Below are positions 10,868 to 50,296 of a stretch of 64,000 nt of DNA, one piece after another. The stretch covers positions 1-64,000 of the forward strand of contig NZ_JANU01000008.1 in NCBI RefSeq assembly GCF_001044395.1, in the 5' to 3' direction. How positions within the stretch are numbered: position 1 is the first letter of the stretch; every line of letters starts with the position of its first letter. Both the position numbers and the translations under genes were made by a program. The DNA comes from Caenimonas sp. SL110 (GTDB lineage: Bacteria > Pseudomonadota > Gammaproteobacteria > Burkholderiales > Burkholderiaceae_C). Under the pieces are notes generated by a model that ran no database searches, was not told the origin of the DNA, and worked only from the letters and a program-made list of their open reading frames with translations.

Positions 10868-10992
10868 GGCGCTAGCGGGTGGCGGCCCCGCAAAGGTCTG
10901 GTTGCAAGGGGTTTGAAGGTGCGGGCGGAACCCACGGGTTGGTGCAGTTACTGAATTGCCAGTTGCCATCCACACCCAAGAAAGCGCCCCTC

Positions 10993-11598
10993 ATGACCTC
11001 CGCCCGTTCAGCCAGTGTTCCCCGTTTCGTATCGCCCACCAACCCCGCTTCGAATTCGTCCAGCCCATCTGCGCATCCCACGTCCTCGCCCAGCGACGCA
11101 GCCGAAGCTGATCACCTGACCTTCCATGTTCGCCCTCAGCAAGAAATAGAGCCGCTTCTGCTCGGGATTTTCGGAGACCGCGCCAGTTCTATCGAGTACG
11201 AGGCACGCCAGCACGCGGCGCGTACCGCCAGTCGCCGGTCTTGCCTGGTCGCCGCAGTGCAAGCCGGTTGCAATCGCGCCACCCGGATCTGTCGCAAGAT
11301 GAGTCGCGAAGACCTCTTGCTTGCCGAGGCGGACGCGATTCAGAAGCGCTACGACAGGGCTTCCTGCCAGCTCAGGCAAGCCCGCGAGTCCCTGGACGCC
11401 AACTCCTGCGCGGCACTGGCGCTGGACGAGCGCTTGAAGCTGCAGGACGCGCTGGTAGAACGGGGTTTGTGCGCATCGCGGATGGCCCATTTGCGGTTGA
11501 TGTGCAGCGTGGCGGGCATGCCCGAAGACAAGACCCCGTTTCTTCGGATCGACCTTGTGCATCGCACCGAGCTGGAGGTGCAGGGCCTGCTTCGCTAG
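10993..11598 (+). CDS. Unknown Ser-rich protein, effector-like leader
   Basis: A 201-residue protein I do not recognise. The first 40 residues are Ser/Pro/Thr-rich and look disordered (SARSASVPRFVSPTNPAS onward), resembling N-termini of type III secreted proteins. The remainder is helical and charged with several Cys residues and a predicted long helix around SREDLLLAEADAIQKRY. No signal peptide or membrane segment. It is followed directly by a perfect terminator, so it is the last gene of its transcript. The 125 nt upstream of the ATG show no gene. Effector role is only a guess. Confidence 0.6.
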   Translation: MTSARSASVPRFVSPTNPASNSSSPSAHPTSSPSDAAEADHLTFHVRPQQEIEPLLLGIFGDRASSIEYEARQHAARTASRRSCLVAAVQAGCNRATRICRKMSREDLLLAEADAIQKRYDRASCQLRQARESLDANSCAALALDERLKLQDALVERGLCASRMAHLRLMCSVAGMPEDKTPFLRIDLVHRTELEVQGLLR

Positions 11599-11623
11599 TC
11601 GCCCCACTAAACGCCCAGACTTC

Positions 11624-11649
11624 AAAAACGACACTTTTGTGTCGTTTTT
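11624..11649 (+). terminator. Rho-independent terminator
   Basis: AAAAACGACAC pairs perfectly over 11 bp with GTGTCGTTTTT around a TTTT loop, and the 3' arm itself supplies the T-run. It lies 26 nt after the stop of the Ser-rich gene and isolates that gene from the sulfotransferase operon. Because the stem starts with A5 it can also act in the other direction. Confidence 0.9.
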
Positions 11650-11720
11650 CTTACTCATCATTGAATTGATATGAGTACTCAGGTAGTCTCTGCATACTTT
11701 TGGCTTCATAGCCCATACCA

Positions 11721-13883
11721 ATGCATTCGACCTGTGACCCTTCCGATGTGTTGGCGCCGTCCCTCCGGACCTCCAAAGCGCCGCCAGTCCAGCAAACCCC
11801 GCCCCTTGTCTTCATCCTGAGTTCTGTCCGATCGGGCTCGACTTTGCTCAAGTCGATGCTCGATTCGCATTCCCGAATCTTTGCACCGGCGGAGCTGCAT
11901 CTGCTGCCATTCGATCACCTGGGGGATGCACAAAAACAGCTCAACGGCACGGTGCTCGGCCGTGGATTGGAAGAAGCCGCAGTCAGGCTGGTTGGCGAGG
12001 CGACGGCAGCGCAGATCGTCGCATCGTTTCACGCGAATAAAACCCCGGTGCCGCAGATCTACCAGTGGCTGCAAGCACAACTGGAAGGCCGCTACCTCGT
12101 CGACAAGTCGCCGTCGTACCTGGGCAATCCGCGCATCCTGCAAAGAGCGGAAACCGTGTCCGGGTCAAAGCCGCTCTACATCTTCCTGACGCGCCATCCC
12201 TTCGACGTATTCGACTCATTCATCAACAACGGGTTCGACCGCCTGATGCGCATCCTGCGCCTGAACTATGAGCGGATCCGCAAACAGGCGCAGCCCGGCC
12301 TTTCGGACTGGGTGATTCCCTATCACCCCTCGCCAGAAAATCGCTGCAAGACATCTCTTGAAATTGCGCAGGCAACTTATGCCAATGCCAACCGGACGGC
12401 CCTGGAATTTCTGCAGACCATTCCAGCCGACCGTCAGGTGACTCTGACCTATGAAAACCTGGTGCACGCGCCCCGGGCAGAGCTGGAAAAAATCTGCCGC
12501 CTGCTGAAGATCGATTTTGAAAGCGCAATGCTTTCACCCTACGCGGGAACACTGCCGCAAGAAACAGTGGTCGATCCCAAGTTCTACCTGCACCAGGAAG
12601 TCACCACCGGGCGTGCCATGAAATGGCAAGAGCGGGCGGACGCCTGGCTGGATGAGACCTACTCGGCCGAGACGGTCAAGGTGGCATCGGACATGGGCTA
12701 TGACCTTTCGCGCGCTGCCTCACGCATGCCACTGACGCCTGCTCAAGCGGTGTTCCTTAAATCGAATGGCGCGGCCGCGCACTTCTGCCTGGTCATGACA
12801 ACCACGCGGCAGGGCGAAGCCGGGCTTGTAGAGAAGCTGCGCACGCGCCTGCCGGCGCTATTGCAGGCCTTTCCCGGCCTGCGTCATTGCCTGGTGCAGC
12901 ACGAAGGACGCTGGTCGCAAAAGTGCGTGCCCTTGCGCAGCTTTGCGCTGCCGCTGCTTCACGAAACCTTCGAGTCAGGCGCGGCCGGTCAACAGGCTTT
13001 CGCCGAACGCGTGAGCGCGCTGGAGCAAGGCATGCGCCTTGACCAGGCCCCGCTGTTTCGCGTGCTGATCGGCCAATTTGGCGACAGCGACTATCGCATC
13101 GCCTATGTGTTTCATCACTTGCTGGCCGACGGCAAGGCGCTGCTGGCTTTCCACGAGGCGCTGTGGTCTGAAGCTGCCTTGCCTGCGCAATCGCCGATGG
13201 ACTACACCACCGACATGCAGCGCCTGCGCAAGAACTATCCACTGGCGCAGGCCAGGGCCGCACTCGAAAACCTGATCGCGCCATGTTCGCCCTTGCCGGT
13301 ACACGAAACAAGCGAGCGCTGCGTCATCACACGCCACGTCGCCTACCCCGGCGACAAGCGCTATCGCTTTCATGAGTGCGCCCTGGCACTGGAGCAGGCC
13401 TATCGCGCGATCTACCCGCAGGATTGCGCTGTCATTGCCCATCGCGTTCATCGCAGGCGAATCGACAACCAGCACGACTACACGGGTCTGGTGGCCTGGC
13501 TGGCTGGCGATGTGCCGGTGGCCTGCGCTGCACAGGCGAGCGTTGCCGAGCACAGCCGCCGCATGAAACGCGAGATGAAAGACTGGACGGCGTTGTCGCT
13601 GGCCTACGACTGGCTGTATCTGGATGACCAGTTGCCCTCGCTCAACCAGCGCGTGCGGCTGCGCCTGAACTACTTTCCGGTCCCCGATGGCGACCTGCAC
13701 GATACGCAGATCGACCTGCACCAGTCGGGCGCGATGACCGATGACTACCAGATCGACTTCATCGTGCGCGACCACCAGACGCGCGCCGAAATCATCGTGC
13801 GCTTCCTGCAGCCCGCCGTGGCGCGGACCGAAGCACACGACCTGCTTGAACACTGGGCGCTTGCCCTGGAAGGAATGCACTGA
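11721..13883 (+). CDS. Sulfotransferase-condensation domain fusion
   Basis: A 720-residue two-domain protein. Residues about 27-330 are a PAPS-dependent sulfotransferase, with the 5'-phosphosulfate loop SVRSGSTLL at 35-43 and the 3'-phosphate site in LTRHPFDVFDSF. Residues about 345-720 are a nonribosomal-peptide condensation-type domain: opening MPLTPAQAVFLKSN, catalytic HHLLADG at 465-471 (HHxxxDG) and the later DYTGLVAWLAGDVPV segment. No adenylation or carrier domain is present. It could sulfate and acylate one scaffold. First gene of a four-gene coupled operon; its stop overlaps the next start (TGATG). Substrate unknown. Confidence 0.85.
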   Translation: MHSTCDPSDVLAPSLRTSKAPPVQQTPPLVFILSSVRSGSTLLKSMLDSHSRIFAPAELHLLPFDHLGDAQKQLNGTVLGRGLEEAAVRLVGEATAAQIVASFHANKTPVPQIYQWLQAQLEGRYLVDKSPSYLGNPRILQRAETVSGSKPLYIFLTRHPFDVFDSFINNGFDRLMRILRLNYERIRKQAQPGLSDWVIPYHPSPENRCKTSLEIAQATYANANRTALEFLQTIPADRQVTLTYENLVHAPRAELEKICRLLKIDFESAMLSPYAGTLPQETVVDPKFYLHQEVTTGRAMKWQERADAWLDETYSAETVKVASDMGYDLSRAASRMPLTPAQAVFLKSNGAAAHFCLVMTTTRQGEAGLVEKLRTRLPALLQAFPGLRHCLVQHEGRWSQKCVPLRSFALPLLHETFESGAAGQQAFAERVSALEQGMRLDQAPLFRVLIGQFGDSDYRIAYVFHHLLADGKALLAFHEALWSEAALPAQSPMDYTTDMQRLRKNYPLAQARAALENLIAPCSPLPVHETSERCVITRHVAYPGDKRYRFHECALALEQAYRAIYPQDCAVIAHRVHRRRIDNQHDYTGLVAWLAGDVPVACAAQASVAEHSRRMKREMKDWTALSLAYDWLYLDDQLPSLNQRVRLRLNYFPVPDGDLHDTQIDLHQSGAMTDDYQIDFIVRDHQTRAEIIVRFLQPAVARTEAHDLLEHWALALEGMH

Positions 13884-14965
13884 TGCGCGACCCCATCTAC
13901 CATCCATTTGCGGGCGTCACCTTCGCGCAGTGGTGGTCCATCCTGGCCCAGAACGGACTGCGGATTCACGACGCAAAAAAGTTTGCCTGGCTCACGGCCA
14001 AGAGCATCCGCAACTCTTTCGAAGCAGCCAGTGAAGCCCGGCAATACGGAGCGCAAATCGGGGCGCACCCGATCGCGCAGCCGCCCATCTTCATCGTGGG
14101 CCATTGGCGCAGCGGAACCACGCACCTGGAAAACATCCTGTGCCAGGACCCGGCGTTCGGCTATCTCAATGTCATCCAGTCGATCTATCCCTATTCGTTT
14201 CTGACGCGAGGCGATGCCTACGCAGGGCGCTTTGTGCAGACTAAGCGCTACATGGACAACGTCGCGTTGGCCGCAAAGTCGCCTTCCGAAGAAGAAGTGG
14301 CGCTCGCGGTACTGGCACCCGGCAGCTTCTGGCACGGCTACTACTTCCCCAAGAAGATGGATGACTACTTTGACCGCTATGTGCTGTTCAAGGGCATCGC
14401 AGACCACGAATTGACCGGCTGGAAAAATGCCTATGACTACCTGCTGCGCAAACTGTCGTTCGCGCAGCAGGGCAAGCCATTGCTATTGAAGAACCCGCCC
14501 AACACCAGCCGCATTTCGGTGTTGAAGGCGATGTTTCCCGGTGCGAAGTTTGTTCATATCCATCGCAACCCTTATGAGGTGTTCGTCTCACGCATGGCGC
14601 AGTTCAACAAGGCTGTGCTCAAGAAGGCGCTGCAGCCGATCACGCGCGACGAATGGCACGCGCGCACCCTGCGCTATTACGTGGACATGATGGATGCGCA
14701 CCTTGAGCAGCGCAAAGACCTGCCGGACCATCAGTACGTTGAAGTGTCTTTTGATGAACTGCGCCGCGCGCCGCTGGCCACCATCGAAAAGATCTACAGC
14801 CAGCTTCAGATTGAAAGCTTCGGCACGGCCCAAGCCCCCATCAAGGCCTACCTGCAAACCCTGGGCTCGTACGAGCAGAACCAGTACCAGATGGACACGG
14901 CGCTCACCGACCTGATCTATCAGCACTGGCACCGGACGATCGACATGTGGGACTACAAGACATGA
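13883..14965 (+). CDS. Sulfotransferase family protein
   Basis: A 360-residue PAPS-dependent sulfotransferase, unfused. The 5'-phosphosulfate loop is GHWRSGTTHL (residues 73-82) and the 3'-phosphate region is VHIHRNPYEVFVSRM. It aligns in plan with longer Sulfotransf_3-type proteins that have an N-terminal helical extension. It shares one base with the upstream fusion gene and four (ATGA) with the downstream oxygenase gene. Two separate sulfotransferases in one operon suggest either two sulfation steps or one sulfated intermediate passed on. No signal peptide, so cytoplasmic. Confidence 0.9.
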   Translation: MRDPIYHPFAGVTFAQWWSILAQNGLRIHDAKKFAWLTAKSIRNSFEAASEARQYGAQIGAHPIAQPPIFIVGHWRSGTTHLENILCQDPAFGYLNVIQSIYPYSFLTRGDAYAGRFVQTKRYMDNVALAAKSPSEEEVALAVLAPGSFWHGYYFPKKMDDYFDRYVLFKGIADHELTGWKNAYDYLLRKLSFAQQGKPLLLKNPPNTSRISVLKAMFPGAKFVHIHRNPYEVFVSRMAQFNKAVLKKALQPITRDEWHARTLRYYVDMMDAHLEQRKDLPDHQYVEVSFDELRRAPLATIEKIYSQLQIESFGTAQAPIKAYLQTLGSYEQNQYQMDTALTDLIYQHWHRTIDMWDYKT

Positions 14966-15849
14966 TTTTTCCTGAAACCTTTGGTGCGTTGGTCACACCT
15001 GAAACCAGCACCCTCGACCCCGCCACCTTGCAAGAGCAACTGCTCCACAAAAAAGCTTTGCTTTTTCGGGGCTTTGGGTTTTCTCCTGAGAGCTTTTGCG
15101 AGTTTTCGGAAACCCTGGGCGATGGCTTCATGGACTACCAGGGCGGTGCGTTCGAGCGCAAGGCGATCAACAAGAATCCCACGCTGCTGTCAGTGACCGG
15201 CGAAGGCCAGAGCTTTGCGGTGCCGTTTCACGGCGAGATGTACTACCGGCGACACAAGCCGGAACTGCTGTGGTTCTACTGCGCGGTCGCCCCTGCGCTC
15301 GGTGGTGAGACCACCCTGTGCGACGGCGCCGAGTTCTTCGCCCGGCTGTCCAGCCAGACGCAGCATCTGTTCCTGAAACGCCGCATCGCCTACATCCGCA
15401 GCTACAGCCCGCAGCAGTGGCCCCTGATTTATCAGACCAGCGACCAGAACGAGGTTCGCGCCGTGTGCGACCGCAACGGCCTGCAATGCCACATCGATGC
15501 AGCAGGACAGCTGCAGACACGTTACGAAACCTCGGCAGTCGTTCATGACGCCAGCGGCCGTGCGATGTTCATCAACAACGTGCTGCCCATCCTGACGCAA
15601 GAACGCCTGTGGCAGCTTCAAAACAACCGCGTGCGCCTGGCACCCGATGAACCCATCTCCGACGCGGTGTTCCAGGAACTGATGGACGTTTCCAGAGCGC
15701 TGCAAGTGGCGATCCCCTGGCAGGCAGGCGATGTGGTGCTCGTGGACAACCGGCGCCTGATGCACGGACGCCGCGAGATCAAGGACCTCAACAGAAAAGT
15801 GCTGGTTCGCATGTCGAATTGCAAACAGCTGCAACCCGCTGAAGCGTGA
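14962..15849 (+). CDS. TauD/TfdA-like Fe(II)/2-oxoglutarate dioxygenase
   Basis: A 295-residue non-haem iron oxygenase of the TauD/SyrP type. The iron ligands are visible as H90 and E92 in PFHGEMYY and H268 in RRLMHGRRE, with the 2-oxoglutarate-binding Arg in the NRKVLVRM strand. Conserved ALLFRGFGF near the N-terminus and PALGGETTLCDG also fit. Such enzymes in biosynthetic clusters hydroxylate carrier-bound or free amino acids; TauD itself releases sulfite from sulfonates. ATGA overlap with the upstream sulfotransferase and GTGA overlap with the next gene. Substrate unknown. Confidence 0.9.
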   Translation: MIFPETFGALVTPETSTLDPATLQEQLLHKKALLFRGFGFSPESFCEFSETLGDGFMDYQGGAFERKAINKNPTLLSVTGEGQSFAVPFHGEMYYRRHKPELLWFYCAVAPALGGETTLCDGAEFFARLSSQTQHLFLKRRIAYIRSYSPQQWPLIYQTSDQNEVRAVCDRNGLQCHIDAAGQLQTRYETSAVVHDASGRAMFINNVLPILTQERLWQLQNNRVRLAPDEPISDAVFQELMDVSRALQVAIPWQAGDVVLVDNRRLMHGRREIKDLNRKVLVRMSNCKQLQPAEA

Positions 15850-17189
15850 CCAATCAAATGCTTGAGAGAACTGCCATGTGGGCCAACCGCCACGGTGATG
15901 TATTGAATTCAGATTACCTTGATTGCGGGGCGGGTCCGCACGTCGACTTGCAGTGGCGCGCGCTCAAGAACATTCCAGCGGCAACAGTGGCTTGCTACAA
16001 CGCAACCGGACACATCTTTGTTTCCACCCTGAATGCACCCACAGAGGATGCGGGATGCCTGTGGTGTTTGAACGAGGACGGGCACGTGCTCTGGCACACC
16101 GGAACACGGGTGCGGGCCAGCCTGACATCTCCCGCCGTGACGCAAGCCGGCAGTGTGGTCGTCGCAGATGGCGCGCATCTTTTCCATTGGGCGGTGAGCG
16201 GCGAGTTGCTGTGGCAGGTTCCGTTTGCGCATGAGACGGCGGGCGTGATGATTGCGCCGCAGGGACAGATCGTTGTGCTGGGTATCGATGGTTGCCTGGC
16301 GGTGTTCGATGCCGGGCAAGGCACACAGCTCCATGCACTTCGTCTTGAAAGCGTGCCGATGGCGCAAGGCGTGTGGCACTCGCACATGCGCGGCCGCGCG
16401 GGCGAGGGCATGCGGGCGCGACTGCAGCAACGCGGGGTCGATGCGTCTTACGTGGACACGGGCATACGGCGTTTTCTGGGGATCGGCGTGGCGGCAAAGA
16501 ATGTGCCTGCACTGCATCCGCACAGCGGCCGCATCTTCATCGCGGCAGCTGGCGAAACAGCCGACAGCGGCATCCTGTACGGCATCGACCTGCTGAATCT
16601 GGAGCGTGCATTCAAGGTGTCGATGGGACCCGGATGCGACACCAGCCCGGCGCTGTCTTTCGACCTGAGCCAGGTCTTTTGCGCGGATCAGGGCGGATGC
16701 ATCACCTCGCACGCCACGGACGACGGGCGGGTGTTGTGGTCAACACCCTTGCCCGGAACCTCGTCTGCATCGCCGAACCCGACTCCCGATGGCCGACTCT
16801 ATATTTCGATCAAATCGGATGTCGTCTGTTTGTCGGCGACAGGTGAAGTTTTGTGGACGTCGGAGTTGAAGAAGCAGACCGGCGCTGATGTGCAGATCAA
16901 CTCGGTGTTGTGCGTGAACCGGCAGTTCATTTATTGCGTGGCTGCTTTGGGGCAGGCGTCAGCGGACCGTGGATTTGTGCCCGCTGCGCATGCCCTGCTA
17001 TCGCTCGATCGATTGACCGGGCAGATCGTTTCGCGCACAGCGTTGGCGCATGAGAGTGTGTGCACCCTTTCGATGTGGCCGGATGGAAGCGTGCTCGTGC
17101 CGAGCAAGCCGTTTTTGTATGAGGCGCGAGATCCTGAGTTTTTTGGGTTGGCGAAATATCGGGTCAGGCCGGGCGGCGCATTGTCCTGA
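15846..17189 (+). CDS. PQQ-type beta-propeller protein
   Basis: A 447-residue protein built of WD/PQQ-like blades: repeated units such as GCLWCLNEDGHVLWHTG, AVSGELLWQVP and DGRVLWSTPLPGTSSASPNPTPDGRLYIS. This is the BamB/alcohol-dehydrogenase type of propeller, but there is no signal peptide or lipobox, so it is probably cytoplasmic. Propellers of this kind usually hold proteins together; one also occurs in the eukaryotic aminoadipate-adenylating enzyme AASDH. Starts with a GTG whose GTGA overlaps the oxygenase stop. Possible scaffold or enzyme of the sulfation pathway; not proven. Confidence 0.82.
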   Translation: MTNQMLERTAMWANRHGDVLNSDYLDCGAGPHVDLQWRALKNIPAATVACYNATGHIFVSTLNAPTEDAGCLWCLNEDGHVLWHTGTRVRASLTSPAVTQAGSVVVADGAHLFHWAVSGELLWQVPFAHETAGVMIAPQGQIVVLGIDGCLAVFDAGQGTQLHALRLESVPMAQGVWHSHMRGRAGEGMRARLQQRGVDASYVDTGIRRFLGIGVAAKNVPALHPHSGRIFIAAAGETADSGILYGIDLLNLERAFKVSMGPGCDTSPALSFDLSQVFCADQGGCITSHATDDGRVLWSTPLPGTSSASPNPTPDGRLYISIKSDVVCLSATGEVLWTSELKKQTGADVQINSVLCVNRQFIYCVAALGQASADRGFVPAAHALLSLDRLTGQIVSRTALAHESVCTLSMWPDGSVLVPSKPFLYEARDPEFFGLAKYRVRPGGALS

Positions 17190-17209
17190 CGCCAGCCCGA
17201 CGAAGAACT

Positions 17210-17485
17210 GTGGCCCCCGTCTCTCCGGGAGAGATGCTGGATAAGGAATTCCTGAAGCCGCTGGGCTTGACGAAGTACCGCTTGGCCAACGACATTGGAG
17301 TGCCCGCGCAGCGCATTGGCGACATCGTCGCGGGCAAGCGCGCCATCACCGCCGACACTGACTTGCGGCTGTGCCGTTACTTTGGATTGAGCGACGGCTG
17401 GTGGATTCGCGGCCAGGCTAACTACGACACCGCCATCGCGCGCGCGGCGATGGGCGAGACCCTGGCTCGCATCCCGCGTTGCTAA
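17210..17485 (+). CDS. Orphan HigA-type antitoxin
   Basis: A 91-residue XRE-family protein of the HigA/VapA group. It begins PVSPGEMLDKEFLKPLGLTKYRLANDIGVPAQRI and continues IVAGKRAITADTDLRLCRYFGLSDGWW, the usual opening and DNA-binding helix-turn-helix. In normal higBA operons the RelE-like toxin HigB lies directly upstream. Here the upstream gene is the propeller protein 20 nt away, so the toxin gene is missing. Start is a GTG at 17210. A degenerate piece of the same gene is found at 21948-22050. Confidence 0.85.
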   Translation: MAPVSPGEMLDKEFLKPLGLTKYRLANDIGVPAQRIGDIVAGKRAITADTDLRLCRYFGLSDGWWIRGQANYDTAIARAAMGETLARIPRC

Positions 17486-17681
17486 TTGCTGGCTGCTTGA
17501 AAAGCACGTAACGCCCGCAGCGAGGATGCATCGGATCAGGCGACATCGTGCACGGCAAGGCTGCCACGGCAATCAGCAGTTCTCCGAACGCATCTGTGCG
17601 GGCAACGGCGTTACCTGATTTCTCAAATTCGCCTGCTGAACCAACCGGAAGCATGCTGCTGACGGCACTACATGCTCCGCC
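17486..17681. other. Intergenic region after higA
   Basis: About 196 nt between the orphan HigA gene and the convergent repeat-protein stop. I see no gene with recognisable content, no clean terminator and no REP element. Short open frames here do not resemble known proteins. Confidence 0.5.
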
Positions 17682-20408
17682 TCATGTGAGTGCTAGCGAT
17701 GGAGCGTTCCTAAACTTCACATTCACTGAAAGGCCCGCCAAGCCATCAATAAAAGCTTTCAAAGCATCGGCTTGCGCCGCCTTCTCCGCAACGGTGGCGG
17801 CCTCGCGATGTGCCAAGGTCTTTGGCACGATTTCGGCGATCTGTTGCGGGCTCAGGCCTGCTCCGCTCAGGCCTTCCATGAATGCGGTCACTGTCGCCAC
17901 GTGCCCGCCGTACAGCGCATAGTACAAGCCGGAATTACCGTCGGACTTTCTCGCGGCGACAATTTCGGTGACCTGTTGCGGGCTCAGGCCTGCTCCGCCC
18001 AGTCCATTCATCAACGCTTTTACCGTGGCGGCGTGCCCACGCCGCAGTGCTGAGTACATGCCGGGGTACCCGCCAGAACCCTTGGCGGTAACTATGTCGA
18101 AAATCTCCTGCGGATTGAGGCCGCCACTCTTCACGCTATTCATCACCGCACTCACCGCAGCACTGTCGCCTCTTTTCAGCGCACCCCTGAGGGTGCGCCC
18201 CCAGTCGGAGACGCTGACCGCCACGCTGTCGTCGATCCGTTGCTTCGTGTTCACTGGCGTCCCTGCGACGACGATTTCCACGATTTCGTGTTCACTGAAC
18301 CCAAGATTCTCCAAACCGTTCGTGAACGCAGTCGCTGCATCCGTGTGCCCTTTCTCCAGTGCCAGATGCAGGCCGGAGTCCCCATTCGAGTTCTTGGCAG
18401 CGACGATCTCAGCAATCCGTCTCGAGCGAAGACCCGCTCCGGCCAAGCCGCTCATGAATGCCGTCACTGTGGCTGCGTGTCCCTGGTCGAGTGCAAAGTT
18501 CAAGCCCGGGGTCCGGTCAGAACCCTTCGCATCAAAAAGTTCGGCGATCTTTTGCGGGCGCAGGCCTGCGCCCTTCACGCCGTCCATGTAAGCAGTCACG
18601 GTAGCTGCGTGCCCATTGCAAAGCAAAACGCAAAAGCCGCGCGTTCCATCCCGACTCTTGGCGGCTACGATTTCGGCGATCTGGTCCGGGTTGAGGTCCG
18701 CCCCTATCAAGCCGCTTATGAAAGCCGTCACTGCTGCTTTGTGCCCGAAATACAGTGCGTAGTAGAGGCCGGGACTCCCTTGACGATCCTTGGCGGAGAC
18801 AATCTCGACGGTCTGCTGCCGGCTGAGGCCGCTACGCTTAAGGCCGTCCATGAACGCCGTCACCGCAGCGGCGTGCCCGTCCTGCAGCGCCATGTACAAG
18901 CCCGGAGTCCCGTCAGCATCCTTGGCAGCGACGATTTCGGCGATCCGATGCGTGCCTAGCCCGGCACTCAGTAAGCGGTTCATGACTGCACTCACCGCAG
19001 TCGCGTTGCCATCAACAAGCGCGGCGTAAAGATCGGCCTTTAGATCCGAGCCCTCACCGGTCCTGCTGCCGTCGATCTGTGGCTGCGTGATGTGCTTTGC
19101 TGGCCCCTGCTTCGCCTCATGGGTCGATGCGAAACTCTTCACTGGCACTTGGGCCCCTGTGAGTTCGGCGATCGTCCCGGAGTCCAACCCAAGCCCGCCA
19201 AGACCCCTCGTGAAGGCCGCCACCGCAGCGGTGTGCCCGTTCTTCAGCGCCAGTTGCACGCCATGTTCGTGCTCAGGGTCCTTGACCGCAACCAGCTCTG
19301 TGATCTGTTGTTGGCTCAGGCCCAGGTGCTGGAGTCCGCTCAGGTACGCACCCACCGATTCGCTCTGTCCCTGGGCCAACGCAAAGTGCAGCCCCGACAC
19401 GCCATCCGAGTCAAGGGCTGAAACAGCATGGGCAATCTGTGCCGCGTTGAGGCCCAGGTCCTTCACGATGTTCATGAATGCGGCCACCGTGTCTGGATAG
19501 CCGTCTTGCAGCGCAAAGAACAGGCCCGAGTCGCCGTCGGAGCTTTTGGGGGTCACGAGTTCGGCGATCTGGTGCGGGCGCAGGCCCAGGCCTTTCAAGC
19601 GGCTGATGTATGCAACCACCGTCTCCGTCTGTCCGTCCTGCATCGCAAAGTACAGGCCCGGATCACCGTCGGAGTTCCTGGCAGCAAGGAGCCGGTGCAA
19701 CTGCTGGGGGCTCAGGCCCTGGTCCGCCAGCGCGTCCATGAACGCTGCTACTGCGGCGGTGCGACCGTGCTGCAACGCGAAATACAAGCCGGGTGTGCCG
19801 TTGGCGTTTCTGGCCGTAGCGGCGCAAGCGAAGTCCTGGGGGTTGGGACAGGCCTTCTTCAAGCCATTCATCAAGGCAGCGACGTCCGCCGCGCGCCCCT
19901 GCTCCAGGGCGCTGAATAGCTGCGCGGGCTTGTCAGCCGCATCGCCTGCGGCTGACACTTCCGGTACGGCCACGGCATTTGCTTCTTTTGATGGTGGCAG
20001 CTTCATTTCTGCTGCGGGAACATGAATGGAAACGGGTGGCGTCGGTGGGGCCTGGTGATCGATCACCGTGACACCTACTTCACGCAACGCATTCGTAAGT
20101 ACGCGCCTGACGGGTTCGCTCAGATGCGCAGCCAGCTCAAGAGCGCGTGCTTCATCGGTACACATCGGTGCCAGGCGGTCCCGTTCGCGACGCAAGGCCG
20201 TCAATTCTTCGTGCTGCAAGCCGCGAGCAGGAAAACGCTCCTTCAGCTTCACGTCGTCGCCAATTGCCTGATTGACGTCATTGATAAAGAGTTGCTGGCG
20301 CACGCCTGCGTTTGGGTTGGCGTTCGGCCGTGCAGCCACGGTGTTGAAGGCCGCGGCCTTTCCTTGGGAAGAGGTCGGCGACAGCCGGGCGCTGGAAGTT
20401 GATTGCAT
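17682..20408 (-). CDS. Giant ankyrin-like 44-residue repeat protein A
   Basis: A 908-residue protein. The N-terminus is Ser/Thr-rich (QSTSSARLSPTSSQGK). Residues about 40-130 form a helical module shared with the two neighbours (FINDVNQAIGDD, then RERDRLAPMCTDEARALEL and HLSEPVRRVLTNAL). From about residue 165 on there are some 15 units of 44 residues, in three blocks of 6, 6 and 3. Each unit reads roughly GTPGLYFALQDGHAAAVTAFMDGL, then GLSPQQIAEIVAAK, so it looks ankyrin-like with an extra helix. Blocks 2 and 3 open with a cap (DLKADLYAALVDG). No enzyme motif. Possible secreted effector; only the repeat architecture is certain. Confidence 0.8.
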   Translation of the reverse strand: MQSTSSARLSPTSSQGKAAAFNTVAARPNANPNAGVRQQLFINDVNQAIGDDVKLKERFPARGLQHEELTALRRERDRLAPMCTDEARALELAAHLSEPVRRVLTNALREVGVTVIDHQAPPTPPVSIHVPAAEMKLPPSKEANAVAVPEVSAAGDAADKPAQLFSALEQGRAADVAALMNGLKKACPNPQDFACAATARNANGTPGLYFALQHGRTAAVAAFMDALADQGLSPQQLHRLLAARNSDGDPGLYFAMQDGQTETVVAYISRLKGLGLRPHQIAELVTPKSSDGDSGLFFALQDGYPDTVAAFMNIVKDLGLNAAQIAHAVSALDSDGVSGLHFALAQGQSESVGAYLSGLQHLGLSQQQITELVAVKDPEHEHGVQLALKNGHTAAVAAFTRGLGGLGLDSGTIAELTGAQVPVKSFASTHEAKQGPAKHITQPQIDGSRTGEGSDLKADLYAALVDGNATAVSAVMNRLLSAGLGTHRIAEIVAAKDADGTPGLYMALQDGHAAAVTAFMDGLKRSGLSRQQTVEIVSAKDRQGSPGLYYALYFGHKAAVTAFISGLIGADLNPDQIAEIVAAKSRDGTRGFCVLLCNGHAATVTAYMDGVKGAGLRPQKIAELFDAKGSDRTPGLNFALDQGHAATVTAFMSGLAGAGLRSRRIAEIVAAKNSNGDSGLHLALEKGHTDAATAFTNGLENLGFSEHEIVEIVVAGTPVNTKQRIDDSVAVSVSDWGRTLRGALKRGDSAAVSAVMNSVKSGGLNPQEIFDIVTAKGSGGYPGMYSALRRGHAATVKALMNGLGGAGLSPQQVTEIVAARKSDGNSGLYYALYGGHVATVTAFMEGLSGAGLSPQQIAEIVPKTLAHREAATVAEKAAQADALKAFIDGLAGLSVNVKFRNAPSLALT

Positions 20409-20429
20409 GGTTAAAGATCGTTCTTGCAG
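20409..20429 (-). promoter_or_regulatory. Conserved leader box before repeat protein A
   Basis: Reads CTGCAAGAACGATCTTTAAC on the coding strand directly before the ATG. The same box precedes the other two paralogues at 21872-21892 and 25147-25167. It has no good Shine-Dalgarno core, so it may be another translation or export signal, or just a copied leader. Confidence 0.5.
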
Positions 20430-20437
20430 TAGGTTTT

Positions 20438-21871
20438 TTATTGAGAGACGGCGTCGACAGTCGTCGGCTGAATATGCCGGCGCAGTTCTGCGATGTGCTT
20501 GCCCAGCGGCTCTTCGATTCTTGCCAGTTGGGCGGGCGTGATGAGGTGCTGCCGTTGCAGCCATGTCAAGCCCAGCCCGTAGGCCTCCAGGGCCTCGATT
20601 CGCGCTGTTTTTGAGGCGCCCGTATGGCTGGCCGATGGACCCGGCAACGGCACGTCGACGATGTTGATGATGTGCGACTTGCTGAGGCCTGCGCCCTGCA
20701 GGCCGTCCATGAAGGCCTTCACTGCGGCGGGGCGCCCCTCAGCCAGCGCGCAATACAGGCCAGACGCATCGTCAGCGCCCCTGGCAGCGACGATGTCGGC
20801 GATCTGTTTCGAGCTGAGGCCGAGTTTGCTCAGACTGTCCATGAAGGCGGTCACCACAGCGGCTTTGCCTGCATACATCGCGAAATACAAACCAGGTGCA
20901 TGGTTCGCGTCCCGGGCAGCGACGATGTCGGCGATCTGTTTCGAGTTAAGGCCAATTTTCACAAGGCCGTCCATGAATGCCGTCACTGCACCTGCGCTGC
21001 CGAATTTCATCGCAAAGGACAAGCCAGGAATTCCGTCGGCATCCTTGGCGGCGAGGAGATCGGCCACCTGCTCCCGGCCCAGACCGGCTCCTCGCAGGCT
21101 TTCCATCAACCCTTTGGCGGTGTGCGCTTCGATCAAGGCCATGAAGGCGTTGACGATGGGGCCTTGTCCTTCAATGAGCGCCCAGCACAAGTTGGAGGTT
21201 CCGTCGGGGCTACGGGCTGCGACGATGTCAGCGACATGTTGCGCGCCGAGGCCTGCGCCCTTCAGGCCGTCCATGAACGCCATCACCGCGCCGGTGTGGC
21301 CCGCGTACAGCGCACGCTGAAGGCCGGAGCGGCCCTTGTGGTCTGTGGCAAGCACGAGGTTCACGAACCGGTCCGGGTGGCCGTTGCATACCTGCTTCAA
21401 GCTGCGCATGGCCGCACTCACCACCGCGCCGTCGTTACCCCGCAGCGCGTCGTAGAGATCGTTCGACAACGCTGCGTCGCTACCGACTACATGGGACGCT
21501 ACCGGCACGGCCTGGTAATCGGCGACCGTGAAACCGGCCGCTTGAAGCGCGCCCGTGACCAGACGCCTGACGGGCTCGCTGAGATGCTCGGACAGGACAA
21601 GGGCGGCGGCTTGATCGGTACACATCGGCGCTACGCGGTCCCGTTCGCGGTGCAAGGCGGTCAACTCTTCATGCGCAAGGACGTGCGAGGCATCGTGCGC
21701 TTTGAGCGTTGCATCGTCTCCAATGGCCTGGTTGATGTTGTCGATGAAGAGTTGCTGGCGCACGCCTTCGGTTGCGTTCGCATGCGCATAGGGCGGTGCC
21801 GCTGCGGTGTTGAAGGTGATGGTTTTCGGGGAAGCGGTCGGGGACAGACGGACGCTGGAAGTTGAGTGCAT
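20438..21871 (-). CDS. Ankyrin-like 44-residue repeat protein B
   Basis: A 477-residue paralogue of its neighbours, 29 nt upstream of protein A. It has the same Ser-rich leader (HSTSSVRLSPTASPK), the same N-terminal module (LFIDNINQAIGDDATLK, then HLSEPVRRLVTGAL) and six repeat units, one expanded by a second helix pair (ALIEGQGPIVNAFMALIEAH, then GLMESLRGAGLG). The C-terminal 60 residues are different: a helical tail with QRQHLITPAQLARIEEPLGKHIAELRRHI. Start MHSTSSV is chosen because it aligns with protein A and follows the shared leader box. Confidence 0.8.
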   Translation of the reverse strand: MHSTSSVRLSPTASPKTITFNTAAAPPYAHANATEGVRQQLFIDNINQAIGDDATLKAHDASHVLAHEELTALHRERDRVAPMCTDQAAALVLSEHLSEPVRRLVTGALQAAGFTVADYQAVPVASHVVGSDAALSNDLYDALRGNDGAVVSAAMRSLKQVCNGHPDRFVNLVLATDHKGRSGLQRALYAGHTGAVMAFMDGLKGAGLGAQHVADIVAARSPDGTSNLCWALIEGQGPIVNAFMALIEAHTAKGLMESLRGAGLGREQVADLLAAKDADGIPGLSFAMKFGSAGAVTAFMDGLVKIGLNSKQIADIVAARDANHAPGLYFAMYAGKAAVVTAFMDSLSKLGLSSKQIADIVAARGADDASGLYCALAEGRPAAVKAFMDGLQGAGLSKSHIINIVDVPLPGPSASHTGASKTARIEALEAYGLGLTWLQRQHLITPAQLARIEEPLGKHIAELRRHIQPTTVDAVSQ

Positions 21872-21892
21872 GGTGAAAGATCGTTCTTGCAG
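21872..21892 (-). promoter_or_regulatory. Conserved leader box before repeat protein B
   Basis: Reads CTGCAAGAACGATCTTTCAC on the coding strand right before the ATG; one base differs from the copy before protein A. Sequence upstream (CACCCGCACGAGCGGCTC) also resembles that before protein C, so the duplicated unit included promoter DNA. Confidence 0.5.
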
Positions 21893-21947
21893 GAGCCGCT
21901 CGTGCGGGTGAGAGGGGGTGAGACGTGCCGCCGGTGCTGCAGCCGGG

Positions 21948-22050
21948 CGGCGGGAAAGCGCAACATCACTGCTGACACTGACTTGCGGCTGTGCCGGTAG
22001 GTCGAAGCGAGCGACGTCTGGTGGCTTCGCGGCCAGGCCAGCTACGGGTT
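21948..22050 (+). pseudogene. Relic fragment of a higA-type antitoxin gene
   Basis: The bases GCTGACACTGACTTGCGGCT and GTGCCG match the orphan HigA gene near 17350, and the translated string KRNITADTDLRLCR then meets a stop, resuming as SDVWWLRGQASY. The similarity runs about 100 nt. It therefore derives from a second higA copy, and lies between repeat proteins B and C. Confidence 0.75.
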
Positions 22051-22074
22051 CCCTGCCCCGCGCCGACAAGACGC

Positions 22075-25000
22075 TCAGCTGCGCAGTTCTGCGATCCGCC
22101 TTGAAGTTGCCTCTGCGATCAGATTGATCTGTACGCCGGCGTAAAGCCCCCTGCTACGGCGATGCGTGGAGAGCAAACCCTGCTTGAAGGCCTCCAAGGT
22201 ATGTGCCAGCCTCATTCTCTGCATAAAGTCGCCCGACACGCCCGGCAACTCCACACGCACGATTTTCAAGATATCCAGGTCGAGCTCGGCATCTTTCAGG
22301 CCTTCCATAAATGCTGTCACTACAGGTGCGTCTCCATGACGAAGCGCCACGGACAAGCCCAGGTTCCCGTCGGAATCCTTGGCAGCAAGGATTTCGGCGA
22401 CCTGCTCCTCGCTCAGGTCTAATCGTCTCAGGCCTTCCATGAACGCCGTCACTGCTGCTGCTCGTCCGCTTTGCAGCGCAAATTGCAACCCAGGAATTCC
22501 GTCAGACGTCTTGGCGGAAACGATTTCAGCAACTTGCAGTGCGCTGAGGCCCGCTCGGCTCAGGCCTTCCATGAACGCCGTCACTGCTGCTGCGTGCGCC
22601 TCCTGGAGCGCAAGCACCAAGCCAGGGTTCCCACCGAAACTCTTGGCGGCGACGATTTCTGCAACTTGCTGCGGGCTGAGGCCTGCTCCCCTTAGGCCTT
22701 CCATGAACGCCGTCACTGCTGCTGCGTGTCCTAAGAGAAGCGCCGCATACAAGCCAGGGTTCCCATCGGAACCATTCGCAGTCACGATTTGGGCAACTTG
22801 GCGCGGGCTGAGGCCGACTGCTCTCAGGCCGTCCATGAACGCTGTCACTGCTGCTGCCTGTCCTTGTTGAAGCGCCACCCGCAAACCGGGGGTCCCATCA
22901 GAATCTTTGGCAGCCACGATTTCGCCAACTTGCTGCGGGTGAAGACCTGCTCCTCTCAGGCCTTCCATGAACGCCGTCACTGCTGCTGCGTGGCCTTCTT
23001 GCAGCGCGAAGAACAGGCCAGGGTGCCCATTGGAATCTTTGGCGGCAACGACTTCGGCAACTTGCTGCGCGCTGAGGCCTGCTCCTCTCAGGCCTTCCAT
23101 GAACGCCGTCACTGTTGCTGCGTGTCCGTCCTGGAGCGCAAAGAACAAGCCAGGGGTCCCGTCAGACTTCTTGACAGCCACGACCACGATGTCGGCAACT
23201 TGCTGCGGGCTCAAGCCTACTCGTCTGAGGCCTTCCAGGAACGCCGTCACTGCTGCTGCTTGTCCGTTTTGCAGCGCAATGTACAAGCCAGGGGTCCCAT
23301 CAAAAAGTTTGGCGGCGACGATTTCGGCAACTTGCTGCGGGCTCAGTCCGGCTCCTCTGAGGCCTTCCATGTACGCCGTCACTGCAGCGGCGTGTCCCTC
23401 AGTCAGCGCAGAGTACAGGCAAGGGTCTCCGGCAGAATTCTTAGCTGCGACGATTTCGGCAACTTGCTGCGCACTGAGCCGTGCTGCTCTCAGGCCTTCC
23501 ATGAACGCTGTCACTACAGCAGCGCGTCCACTACTCAGCGCAGTGCACAAGACAGAGTCCCCATCAGAGTCTTTAACGGCGACGATGTCGGCAACTTGCT
23601 GCGGGTTGAGGCCTGCTCTGCTCAGGCCTTCCATGAACGCCGTCACTGCTGCCGTGTGATCGTTCACAAGCGCGATGGGCCAACCCGCGGTCCCGTCAGA
23701 CCTCCTGGCAGTCACGATTTCGGCAACTTGCTGCGCGCTGAGGCCCGTTCCCCTCAGGCCCTCCATGAACGCCGTCACTGCAGCCGAACGCCCGTTGGAA
23801 AGCGCCAAATACAAGCTAGGCCTCCCACGGGAATCCTTGGCGGCCACGATGTCGGCAACTTGCTGCGAGCTGAGACCTGCTCCCCTTAGGCCTTCCATGA
23901 ACGCCGTTACTGCAGCTGCGTGCCCGTCATTCAGCGCAAAGCACAAGCCAGTGCCCCCGTCAGGCCGCTTGGCGGCGACGATGTCGGCGACTTGATCCAG
24001 GCTGAGGCTTGCTCCTCTCAGACCGTCCATGAACGCCGTCACTGCAGTTGGGTGCCCGCCCCCCACCGCCCAGTACAAACCAGGTTTCCCCGCAGCATCT
24101 TTAGCCCCGAGGACTTCGGCGACTTGCTCCGCGCTAAGACCTGCTCCCTTCAGCCTGGCCATGATCGCGCTCACCACAACGCCGTCGCCATCTTTCAGCG
24201 CCACGTAAAGGTCGGCCCTTAAATCCCTGCCCTTGCGCGCCTTACTGTCGTCGATCTGTTGCTGCGTGATGCAAGGGCCTGCTCCAAAGAGCGCCGCGTC
24301 CACTATATCTGCAGGCTGCTGCGGCTCCGCCGCTCGCGCAGCCTCAACCGCTGCAAGCGCGTATGCCAGCTCCGGCCCATCCTTGCTCTCCGCGACCCGT
24401 GGCAGCACTGGCAATGCCGCCACGTTCGCGCGGCACGTCAAACCCAGCCGCGCCAACTGAGTCACGATCTCAGCCGACAGGTCCACCGTTACGGTGGTGG
24501 CGCCTTCCATCACCGCATCCACCACCGCGTCCTTCGCCCGGCTGGCCGCGCGATAGCTGTCCCGGCCTTCCGTGAGTGCCTGCTTGCAGTGGCGGCTCAG
24601 CACGTCTTCAATCTCTGGCAGATGCAGTTGCGGATTCACGCTGGCAGCAGGCACTGCCACCGGGTTGACGGGAACAGCGGGTAGATGACTCATCTCAGGT
24701 CCGACCACGTCGTCCTCATCCTCGTCATCTGGCGGCGGCTTCTTCATCTCCGCTGCGCGAACATGAACGGATACCGGCGGCGCCTCTTGCTGTGCCTGGC
24801 GATCGACGACGGTGAGGCCCAACCGGCGAAGCGCCTGCGTGATGACGCGCCTGACGGGTTCGCTCAGATGAGGTGCCAAGTCCAGGGTGCCAGTTGTATC
24901 AGCGCACATGGGCGCCAAGCGGTCCCGTTCGCGAAGCAAGGCCATCAGGTCTTCATGCGCCAGACCTTGGGAGGGGTACCGCTCTCTGAGCCGGGCATCG

Positions 25001-25146
25001 TCTCCAATCGCCTGATTGATGCCGTCGATGAAGAGTTGCCGCACATCCGGGCCGTCCGTCGTGCCCGGTTGTGCCGCCGGGATATTGGATGCGTTGAATT
25101 GGTAGGCAGAGCGCAGGGGCAACTGTGCGCTGGAAGCTGGGGTCAT
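22075..25146 (-). CDS. Giant ankyrin-like 44-residue repeat protein C
   Basis: A 1,023-residue paralogue and the first gene of the three on this strand. It has the shared N-terminal module (LFIDGINQAIGDDARLR, then HLSEPVRRVITQAL), then a unique helical insert near residues 185-290. From about residue 310 there are 15 nearly uniform repeat units with a DNA period of 132 bp; one unit carries an extra codon (IVVVAVKKSD). Unit consensus: GLSPQQVAEIVAAKDSDG followed by TPGLYFALQDGHAAAVTAF and MEGLRGA. The most variable positions are around DSD, YF and QD, as on an ankyrin binding face. Uniformity implies recent repeat amplification or gene conversion. No known catalytic motif. Confidence 0.82.
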   Translation of the reverse strand: MTPASSAQLPLRSAYQFNASNIPAAQPGTTDGPDVRQLFIDGINQAIGDDARLRERYPSQGLAHEDLMALLRERDRLAPMCADTTGTLDLAPHLSEPVRRVITQALRRLGLTVVDRQAQQEAPPVSVHVRAAEMKKPPPDDEDEDDVVGPEMSHLPAVPVNPVAVPAASVNPQLHLPEIEDVLSRHCKQALTEGRDSYRAASRAKDAVVDAVMEGATTVTVDLSAEIVTQLARLGLTCRANVAALPVLPRVAESKDGPELAYALAAVEAARAAEPQQPADIVDAALFGAGPCITQQQIDDSKARKGRDLRADLYVALKDGDGVVVSAIMARLKGAGLSAEQVAEVLGAKDAAGKPGLYWAVGGGHPTAVTAFMDGLRGASLSLDQVADIVAAKRPDGGTGLCFALNDGHAAAVTAFMEGLRGAGLSSQQVADIVAAKDSRGRPSLYLALSNGRSAAVTAFMEGLRGTGLSAQQVAEIVTARRSDGTAGWPIALVNDHTAAVTAFMEGLSRAGLNPQQVADIVAVKDSDGDSVLCTALSSGRAAVVTAFMEGLRAARLSAQQVAEIVAAKNSAGDPCLYSALTEGHAAAVTAYMEGLRGAGLSPQQVAEIVAAKLFDGTPGLYIALQNGQAAAVTAFLEGLRRVGLSPQQVADIVVVAVKKSDGTPGLFFALQDGHAATVTAFMEGLRGAGLSAQQVAEVVAAKDSNGHPGLFFALQEGHAAAVTAFMEGLRGAGLHPQQVGEIVAAKDSDGTPGLRVALQQGQAAAVTAFMDGLRAVGLSPRQVAQIVTANGSDGNPGLYAALLLGHAAAVTAFMEGLRGAGLSPQQVAEIVAAKSFGGNPGLVLALQEAHAAAVTAFMEGLSRAGLSALQVAEIVSAKTSDGIPGLQFALQSGRAAAVTAFMEGLRRLDLSEEQVAEILAAKDSDGNLGLSVALRHGDAPVVTAFMEGLKDAELDLDILKIVRVELPGVSGDFMQRMRLAHTLEAFKQGLLSTHRRSRGLYAGVQINLIAEATSRRIAELRS
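22287..24170 (-). repeat. Tandem 132-bp coding repeats
   Basis: The bases GGCCTTCCATGAACGCCGTC recur at near-exact 132-nt spacing (for example near 22431, 22563, 22695 and 22959) across repeat protein C. Units encode 44 residues each and are more alike at DNA level than those of proteins A and B, so copy number may change by recombination. Confidence 0.85.
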
Positions 25147-25167
25147 GGTGAAAGATCGCTCTTGCAG
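25147..25167 (-). promoter_or_regulatory. Conserved leader box before repeat protein C
   Basis: Reads CTGCAAGAGCGATCTTTCAC on the coding strand directly before the ATG, differing at one or two bases from the other two copies. The remaining 256 nt up to the next gene hold no recognisable gene. Confidence 0.5.
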
Positions 25168-25423
25168 TGGCCGCTCGCGCGGCTGAGAGGTTGGGTACCC
25201 CGCCGTTACTGCAAGCGGGCCGGTAAAGCGTGCCGATCATATTTGAAAACCAATGGATTACTCATGGACGTCGCTGACGCCATAGTTCCCAGAGGTGTGC
25301 AACCCATCTACTTCCGAGCGGTACTAGGTTAGTTGCTACGGTTTAATCTCTGCGTTTAGAAGTTATTGACATGCTCCCAATTGCCGTACCGGCTGAATTG
25401 AACAATTCATAGCCAGCCACACC
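25168..25423. other. Boundary between repeat genes and AT-richer immunity block
   Basis: No gene is visible in these 256 nt. Base composition shifts from GC-rich to clearly AT-richer near 25230-25250. A short stretch around 25200-25235 vaguely resembles the higA relic. No insertion-sequence ends or target duplications were recognised. Confidence 0.4.
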
Positions 25424-25795
25424 TCAAGGCAAATGTTGATAAAACTCGCGGTTCTCCCAGTCATCGCTGTAGGCCGCAATCACCTTTTCAGACGGCGCAC
25501 CCGTTGCAATGGCATCAGGCATAGCTAGGAGCTGTGCATCCATCCATTGGCGAACATTCGGCCACCGAAGCCTGTGCATCAGGTAGGCAATCGGCTCATC
25601 ACTCACTTTGTGATCTCTGAAGAGAGTTATCAACAAATCTTCGAACTGAGGCTGTAGTTGTGGAGCACTCGCCATGAGTGCAAGAACGCGCAAATAATTT
25701 GGCTCGGCCAGTTCGAATGAGAAATCTGTATTCAGCACATTCTCTGCGCGCAGCAACTCGTCTCTTACTTGTGTGATCAATTCAGCGGAATCCAT
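25424..25795 (-). CDS. Unknown small acidic protein, likely immunity protein
   Basis: A 123-residue protein of unknown family, acidic and helical (DSAELITQVRDELLRAENVL opening, EPIAYLMHRLRWPNVRQWMD in the middle). GGGGAGGAAG immediately before the ATG is a strong ribosome site and fixes the start. It sits at the far end of a row of small, same-strand genes behind an RHS toxin, two of which are barstar-like, so an immunity role is likely by position. Base composition is lower in GC than surrounding core genes. Confidence 0.65.
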   Translation of the reverse strand: MDSAELITQVRDELLRAENVLNTDFSFELAEPNYLRVLALMASAPQLQPQFEDLLITLFRDHKVSDEPIAYLMHRLRWPNVRQWMDAQLLAMPDAIATGAPSEKVIAAYSDDWENREFYQHLP

Positions 25796-25883
25796 CTTCC
25801 TCCCCTTGTCATTACACGTGCAAAGGGATCGCGAGATGGTCCAAGCCCGCAGGCGCTCAAGGGGCTCAGTAATCGGTTTAGAT

Positions 25884-26815: not shown

Positions 26816-26848
26816 TGAGATTTCCGGATTTCGCTCAGGTCATGCCTA

Positions 26849-27148: not shown

Positions 27149-27172
27149 TTCACTTCGACCAGCCACGTCGTA

Positions 27173-27505: not shown

Positions 27506-27506
27506 A

Positions 27507-50281: not shown

Positions 50282-50296
50282 ACCGCATCGGTCATA

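What the first reader, a model, noticed from the sequence alone, without database searches (positions are those of the whole stretch)
11721..17189. Sulfotransferase-condensation fusion in a coupled four-gene operon
A sulfotransferase is fused to a full-length condensation-type domain with HHxxxDG intact, followed by a second sulfotransferase, a TauD-like oxygenase and a PQQ-type propeller, all with overlapping starts. No adenylation or carrier domain is nearby. This layout suggests a small sulfated, acylated or hydroxylated metabolite or a modification pathway that I cannot match to a described one. Motifs are seen; the pathway is inferred.
Basis: partly seen in the sequence, partly recalled or inferred. 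Interest (0 to 1): 0.8.

Follow-up and report, generated by a model that had tools for sequence, protein, structure and literature searches.

The report
Sulfotransferase–condensation operon outside an NRPS cluster
A bacterium related to Caenimonas carries four coupled genes, led by an unusual enzyme that joins a sulfate-adding domain to a half-recognisable condensation domain, as a small cassette that recurs at another place in one relative's genome and probably makes a sulfated small molecule.

Summary
The four genes are real and translationally coupled. Two corrections: only the N-lobe of the condensation (C) half is recognisable by sequence, and carrier/adenylation domains, absent among the 34 window ORFs scanned, occur elsewhere in this genome. 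The sulfotransferase (ST) half belongs with the CurM/Ols STs, which sulfate hydroxyacyl groups on assembly lines. ST-then-C order is known: I found C-A-PCP-ST-C-A-PCP-TE in a genome of the same order, and a review describes PCP-ST before the next module in AerB. The window protein is thus an ST–C unit without its carrier, paired with a second ST, an HxE-type TauD oxygenase and a propeller. Of about 60 genus genomes searched, only this one and Caenimonas koreensis carry it (76–88% protein identity); there it sits at another locus, again facing an OspD3-like repeat gene, a family found in the same two of 59. C. koreensis shows no other NRPS-type C domain, so the module probably serves no dedicated NRPS. 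Best reading: hydroxylation, sulfation and condensation of an ACP- or CoA-bound acyl group; substrate and product unknown. New variant of a known kind.

The parts
11652..11720 (+). Conserved upstream segment of the operon; contains CTCTGCATACTTTTGGCT at 11688-11705
   Evidence: DNA homology with C. koreensis begins at 11652; the 18-mer is identical in both, chance expectation 0.02 in the window with up to 3 mismatches
11721..13883 (+). STC: sulfotransferase (res. ~24-330, CurM/Ols type) fused to a condensation-type half (res. ~332-720; HHLLADG; only the N-lobe recognisable)
13883..14965 (+). Second, distinct sulfotransferase (Sulfotransfer_3)
   Evidence: 84% identical in C. koreensis; weak PDB relatives 2z6v, 2zq5
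14947..15849 (+). TauD-family Fe(II)/2-oxoglutarate oxygenase with HxE...H; start probably ATG 14962
15846..17189 (+). PQQ_2/BamB-like beta-propeller, no obvious signal peptide by eye; the start shared with C. koreensis is ATG 15876
17682..20408 (-). Repeat protein 1 (ankyrin-like repeats), convergent with the operon; the ORF extends upstream to 20564
20438..21871 (-). Repeat protein 2; ATG at 21871, the ORF extends upstream to 22069
22075..25146 (-). Repeat protein 3 (44-aa repeats); its C. koreensis homolog matches Shigella OspD3 repeats
10877..53989 (.). Stretch without a match at the collinear locus of C. koreensis: island carrying the cassette and other genes
   Evidence: collinearity stops at window 10876 and resumes at 53990

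Best explanation
The operon is a carrier-in-trans tailoring and coupling module. TauD hydroxylates an acyl or aminoacyl group held as a thioester (inferred from its HxE type and from relatives annotated within NRPS genes). The CurM/Ols-type ST domain of STC sulfates a hydroxyl on that thioester (by homology). The fused C-type domain then transfers the sulfated acyl group to an amine or alcohol acceptor through HHxxxDG chemistry (inferred), taking the place that TE holds in CurM/Ols and that the next C domain holds in ST-containing NRPSs. The second ST adds another sulfate or acts on the acceptor (inferred). The propeller, probably cytosolic, is a binding or scaffold partner (weak inference). 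The thioester carrier is supplied in trans, most likely the housekeeping ACP or CoA: an ACP-sized frame is the one carrier type seen in both carrying genomes.
For: The ST half hits 4gox ('Polyketide synthase', 3.3e-51; that this is the Ols ST is recalled) and 4gbm (CurM ST, 2.6e-48); DxxFxxH and RHP are kept in the eight aligned STs. Ols/CurM ST transfers sulfonate from PAPS to a beta-hydroxyacyl substrate (PMC3903477, passages). ST directly precedes C in one NRPS frame of the same order (L039), and in suomilide/varlaxin AerB PCP-ST precedes the next module (PMC10143770, passages). TauD keeps HxE and distal H/R in four sequences, and some of its relatives on plasmids are annotated within NRPS genes. 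The operon is kept whole, with an identical upstream 18-mer, in two genomes at non-orthologous loci. C. koreensis has one other C-domain match, below the cut-off, which I read as a WS/DGAT-type acyltransferase, and two carrier matches.
Against: The C-lobe (~240 aa) is not recognisable, so acyl-transfer competence is unproven. The carrier search had an E limit of 0.001 and could miss a divergent carrier. This genome does have NRPS pieces elsewhere. The substrate, the role of ST2 and the role of the propeller are not constrained by any test. The ST's nearest kin serve elimination, which speaks for the first rival.
Confidence: 0.4

Rival explanations
1. Sulfate as a leaving group: TauD installs a hydroxyl, ST activates it as a sulfate ester, and the C-type domain catalyses elimination or ring closure (alkene, dehydroamino acid, aziridine or lactam) rather than leaving the sulfate in the product.
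For: The closest solved relatives of the ST (CurM/Ols) serve to activate a beta-hydroxyl for decarboxylation and desulfation. The ST groups with a cyanobacterial PKS ST rather than the NRPS STs. A paper titled for aziridine formation via sulfate elimination appears in a reference list (paper itself not seen).
Against: No TE, the decarboxylating partner, is in the operon. The tree support is moderate (82/89). In AerB the ST step is described as sulfation of the glycerate residue.
Confidence: 0.2
2. Ordinary detached tailoring set for an NRPS elsewhere in the genome (the pieces on contigs C33, C41 and C15, which may be one lipopeptide line).
For: Those NRPS pieces exist in the window's genome; TauD enzymes and STs are common tailoring enzymes (recalled).
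Against: C. koreensis has the operon but no NRPS-type C domain beyond it; no NRPS gene was found among the ORFs scanned near the operon in either genome.
Confidence: 0.15
3. The C half is a degenerate, non-catalytic carrier-docking or dimerising domain and only the ST is active.
For: The C-lobe is unrecognisable, and only the N-lobe with HHxxxDG is clear.
Against: HHxxxDG and long C-lobe stretches are kept between the two orthologs, 76% identical in this half; with only two orthologs this is weak evidence.
Confidence: 0.15
4. The operon and the repeat proteins form one host-interaction unit: the metabolite acts on the same eukaryotic host (for example a protist) that receives the OspD3-like repeat proteins through type III secretion.
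For: Repeat genes occur in 2 of 59 genus genomes, the same two with the operon, convergent beside it in both. OspD3-like repeats. A T3SS secretin over the cut-off in 2 of 2.
Against: Linkage may be hitchhiking on an island. The T3SS was not examined in genomes lacking the operon. Secretion is untested.
Confidence: 0.1

Closest known systems
CurM and Ols polyketide synthases (ACP-ST-TE)
   Same: The ST half is clearly homologous over most of its length, with shared RSGST, RHP and DxxFxxH motifs (CurM/Ols letters).
   Different: There the ST works with an in-cis ACP and a following TE; here no carrier and no TE, and a C-type half follows. The window ST also has 17-29 extra residues after the RHP helix compared with the six non-orthologous STs aligned.
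ST-containing NRPSs: AerB of suomilide/varlaxin (FkbH, PCP, ST, then a second module) and the unnamed G1105 line (TubC_N-C-A-PCP-ST-C-A-PCP-TE)
   Same: ST immediately before a C domain or the next module, in the same order of chemistry.
   Different: Those keep carriers and loading/adenylation domains in cis; the C half here is far from their C domains (17.6 bits summed over two C domains of G1105, best single 11.4).
A-PCP-ST // TubC_N-C-PCP-TE two-protein lines (G054, G1127)
   Same: ST upstream of C; G054 is in the same genus.
   Different: ST and C are on separate proteins with a TubC_N docking domain; carriers present in both.
Stand-alone HHxxxDG acyltransferases (PapA, WS/DGAT; class recalled, one WS/DGAT-type read)
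   Same: C-type fold with the HHxxxDG motif acting without an NRPS (recalled).
   Different: Not fused to an ST; no specific similarity found here.

Membership tests
CurM/Ols-type sulfotransferase | Homology to the ST domains of known structure along the domain | tested here: met
   4gox 3.3e-51, 4gbm 2.6e-48, two aligned stretches each
CurM/Ols-type sulfotransferase | In-cis ACP before it and TE after it | tested here: not met
   STC is ST + C-type half only; so not filed as a CurM-type chain terminator
CurM/Ols-type sulfotransferase | PAPS-dependent sulfation of a carrier-bound hydroxyacyl | not testable with these tools
   needs enzyme assay
NRPS condensation domain | HHxxxDG in an N-lobe homologous to C domains | tested here: met
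   Pfam 1.6e-10; 33.7 bits against best of 1784 scored shuffles 7.7
NRPS condensation domain | Homologous C-lobe completing the two-lobed fold | tested here: inconclusive
   -1.6 bits, 617 of 1456 scored shuffles as good; fold predictions unusable
NRPS gene cluster | A and PCP domains in the same cluster | tested here: not met
   none in the 34 window ORFs scanned or the 10 ORFs scanned around the operon in C. koreensis
TauD-family 2-oxoglutarate oxygenase | HxD/E...H iron triad and 2-oxoglutarate-binding Arg | tested here: met
   HGE, distal H and R conserved in four sequences; Pfam 8.5e-38. Which Arg binds 2-oxoglutarate is recalled
PQQ-dependent quinoprotein | Signal peptide and PQQ-binding dehydrogenase domain | tested here: inconclusive
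   no signal peptide seen by eye in the translation (no predictor run); over Pfam's PQQ_2 cut-off but below the cut-offs of all four NCBIfam models matched
OspD3-like T3SS effector (repeat proteins) | OspD3-like repeats | tested here: met
   27% identity, E about 1e-17, query 207-486 of 549 (made with the C. koreensis protein)
OspD3-like T3SS effector (repeat proteins) | The non-repeat part of OspD3 | tested here: inconclusive
   in the 20 rows listed of 164 only the repeat stretch matches; no such domain in the family scans of the repeat proteins; not filed as OspD3
OspD3-like T3SS effector (repeat proteins) | Injection by a type III secretion system | not testable with these tools
   a secretin is present in 2 of 2 genomes; secretion needs an experiment

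The most novel reading that the evidence does not exclude
STC is a two-step catalyst in which a carrier-bound hydroxyl is sulfated and the divergent C-type half uses the sulfate as leaving group for ring closure or elimination on housekeeping ACP, making a reactive metabolite that is inherited together with candidate T3SS effectors as one anti-eukaryote cassette.
Probability: 0.08. Interest if true: 0.85.

Novelty: new variant of a known kind. Interest (0 to 1): 0.5.

Why it matters
If STC works in trans on ACP or CoA thioesters, it would be a compact, portable ST–C catalyst outside an assembly line, useful for asking what follows carrier-bound sulfation when no thioesterase is present. Caenimonas koreensis DSM 17982, a named strain with the whole cassette and no NRPS-type C domain detected apart from it, makes this testable by one deletion and comparative metabolomics. 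The recurring link to OspD3-like repeat genes also gives a lead on what the cassette is for.

Tried and rejected
Chance ORFs or an assembly artefact: rejected, because the operon is kept in a second assembly at another locus.

An excised piece of the ST-containing NRPSs of the same order: considered, not supported. The ST scores higher against a Calothrix PKS ST (148.2 bits) and an ST ORF of G853 (139.7; Pfam found no carrier domain in it) than against the STs of adenylation-carrying proteins (120.2, 115.5, 107.5 and 86.0), and the C half barely matches their C domains. The grouping with Calothrix has only moderate support (82/89).

TldD/TldE plus crotonase upstream (7429-10867) as part of the pathway: rejected. 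They belong to the backbone at the collinear locus of C. koreensis, on another contig than the operon there.

C-half relatives in the class: 7 of 369 genomes matched at 1e-6; apart from the window itself the matches cover at most profile positions 7-185 of 393, in frames of 1515 to 10887 aa. Plasmid search with the propeller: no match in 72,556 records. With STC: 3 records, ST half only. TauD and ST2 relatives on plasmids: five neighbourhoods opened, four with annotation; a tblastn of the separate domains against all five found only the TauD or the ST2 that had brought each in.

NCBIfam gave STC only weak matches far below cut-off (nodulation protein NoeE, 22.7 of 500 bits; an NRPS/PKS model, 17.9 of 4090); not pursued.

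Structure predictions of STC and of its C half failed (pLDDT 33.6 and 32.6), so no fold search was made.

Limits: in the phylum, family and order searches at most two candidates per genome were scored, five in the class search, about eleven, so weaker or partial relatives may be missed. In the genus searches all or nearly all candidates were scored. The genome-contig scan used two peptide patterns only.
Full report
Observation. The window holds four same-strand ORFs at 11721-13883, 13883-14965, 14947-15849 and 15846-17189. The junctions CTGATG, ATGA and GTGA show overlap; the likely starts of the third and fourth genes are ATG 14962 and, by comparison with C. koreensis, ATG 15876. Pfam gives Sulfotransfer_3 plus Condensation, Sulfotransfer_3, TauD, and PQQ_2.

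The C half. Pfam's Condensation match covers residues 335-479. Against a profile of six C domains taken from fetched NRPS loci, the N-lobe scores 33.7 bits and the C. koreensis ortholog 37.5, with no scored shuffle above 7.7 (1784 of 2000 shuffles got a score). The C-lobe scores -1.6 (617 of 1456 scored shuffles do as well) and the ortholog -2.1 (1028 of 1456). Profile-profile comparison aligns 140 of 393 columns at 96.4% probability. PDB hits to the C half lie in its N-lobe part and are mostly named as NRPS proteins, best E 5.4e-5. Across 369 class genomes, 7 matched at E 1e-6; apart from the window the matches lie in the N-lobe part. 'Full-length' is thus a guess from length. Two AlphaFold jobs with two-row alignments failed (pLDDT 33.6 and 32.6).

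The ST half. Its solved relatives are 4gox ('Polyketide synthase', 3.3e-51; recalled to be the Ols ST) and 4gbm (CurM ST, 2.6e-48). In published work the CurM/Ols STs transfer sulfonate from PAPS to a beta-hydroxyacyl substrate, which activates it for TE-catalysed hydrolysis, decarboxylation and desulfation to a terminal alkene (PMC3903477, passages; also PMC6274090 on haliamide, passages). An alignment of eight STs keeps RSGST, RHP and DxxFxxH. Which residue is the catalytic base is recalled, not read (the structural paper was not held). A tree of the eight places the window ST beside a Calothrix PKS ST with 82/89 support.

ST before C is known. In G1105 (same order) one frame of 2853 aa gives TubC_N-C-A-PCP-ST-C-A-PCP-TE (the second copies of A and PCP are placed from the count of stretches). 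In G054 (same genus) and G1127 (same order) A-PCP-ST is followed by TubC_N-C-PCP-TE on the next frame. A review describes AerB of suomilide and varlaxin as a first module with FkbH, PCP and ST followed by a second module that adds isoleucine (PMC10143770, passages). What is unusual in the window is that ST and C share one protein with neither carrier nor adenylation domain, and that the C half is far from the C domains of those lines (best 17.6 bits summed).

Distribution. STC full length: 2 of 99 relatives, of which 59 are of the genus (the window's genome and G012; a third match, G054, is ST only). Propeller: 2 of 60 genus genomes. STC in a phylum sample: 1 of 398, the window itself. Family sample: 2 of 399, the window and one ST-only match. 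Order sample: 3 of 399, the window and two ST-only matches. The genome-contig scan names G012's contig as Caenimonas koreensis DSM 17982 (equal contig length, 393,039). Identities between the two operons are 79-80, 84, 76 and 87-88%. DNA homology runs from window 11652 to 17167 at 80% and includes 69 bases upstream, with an identical 18-mer.

Context. The collinear C. koreensis locus matches window 7429-10876 (TldD, TldE, crotonase) and resumes at window 53990-56270, with about 1.5 kb between. The stretch between is thus an island here relative to that genome (whether its other genes lie elsewhere in C. koreensis was not tested). The cassette sits on another contig in C. koreensis, between a CCG-domain gene with a family-less ORF beside it and a glyoxalase-domain gene. 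In both genomes the operon faces repeat-protein genes: three in the window, one in C. koreensis. This family matched 2 of 59 genus genomes, the same two; a further weak copy lies at G000:C25:34417-35034. Its repeats resemble those of Shigella OspD3 (27%, E about 1e-17; 164 plasmid records, 124 Shigella and 40 Escherichia). Both genomes hold a type III secretin over the cut-off, and none of 14 control genomes does; genus members without the operon were not examined for it. GC at third positions is 0.70-0.78 in the operon and 0.66-0.75 in the repeat genes, against 0.80-0.88 in six upstream genes and 0.80-0.81 in the RHS and GH94 genes of the island; in C. koreensis the contrast is weaker (0.72-0.82 in the operon against 0.72-0.83 in eight neighbours).

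Carriers. PP-binding matches at E 0.001: 5 in the window's genome, 2 in C. koreensis. Those of C. koreensis are an ACP-sized frame and an AMP-binding/PP/aminotransferase protein. Its C-domain matches are STC and one protein, below the cut-off, that I read as WS/DGAT from its sequence. The window's genome has an AMP-binding protein (FAAL-like, my reading), a desaturase and a C domain ending at a contig end, a PP-C-A contig and a PP-TE contig start; that these form one lipopeptide line is inferred. No NRPS-type C domain of that kind was found in C. koreensis, so this line is unlikely to be the operon's fixed partner. The carrier type seen in both genomes is the ACP-sized frame; CoA cannot be excluded.

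Mechanism. Shown: gene order, families, motif conservation, joint conservation. Inferred: TauD hydroxylates a thioester-held acyl group; ST sulfates it; the C-type half transfers it to an acceptor; the second ST sulfates once more or acts on the acceptor; the propeller assists. The main rival is that sulfate leaves, giving elimination or ring closure. The evidence does not separate these well: ST ancestry favours the leaving-group reading, the known ST-before-C lines favour a kept sulfate.

Novelty. Papers holding sulfotransferase, condensation domain, TauD and beta-propeller together: 0. Two further searches listed no ST–C didomain in the titles and abstract openings shown; the texts were not read apart from the passages named above. 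I rate it a new variant of a known kind. Interest 0.5: rare, conserved as a unit and testable in a named strain, but built of known parts, with substrate unknown and half of the C domain unverified.

Noticed in passing
17682-25146 (-) and L004:4624-6273: Tandem family of repeat proteins (44-aa ankyrin-like repeats) whose C. koreensis member matches Shigella OspD3 repeats; polar N-termini; in 2 of 59 genus genomes. Each of the three window genes is preceded by CTGCAAGARCGATCTTTMACCATG.
   Followed up: partly
G000:C5:287213-288724 and G012:C38:111034-112545: Type III secretion secretin over the curated cut-off in both operon-bearing genomes.
   Followed up: partly
30439-41679 (-): 3746-aa RHS-repeat protein with LysM and a C-terminal CdiA-type RNase A domain: a candidate polymorphic toxin.
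   Followed up: no
G000:C33:161.7-166.4 kb, C41:1-3139, C15:1-1018: AMP-binding protein, fatty acid desaturase, C, A, PP and TE domains at contig ends: probably a fragmented lipopeptide NRPS in the window's genome.
   Followed up: partly
L019:4952-14644: Agrobacterium vitis plasmid with EctB, an A-PCP-ST-TE protein, CysND and a transporter: a CurM-like ST-TE on an amino-acid-type line.
   Followed up: no
10993-11598 (+): ORF without any family match, Ser/Pro-rich start, at the left edge of the island; no match at the collinear C. koreensis locus.
   Followed up: no
42119-50281 (+): 2720-aa GH94/glycoamylase protein, probably a cyclic beta-glucan synthase, inside the island.
   Followed up: no
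26001-30000: Low-GC stretch (54%) with a PIN_12 gene at 27791-28822 (-), inside the island.
   Followed up: no
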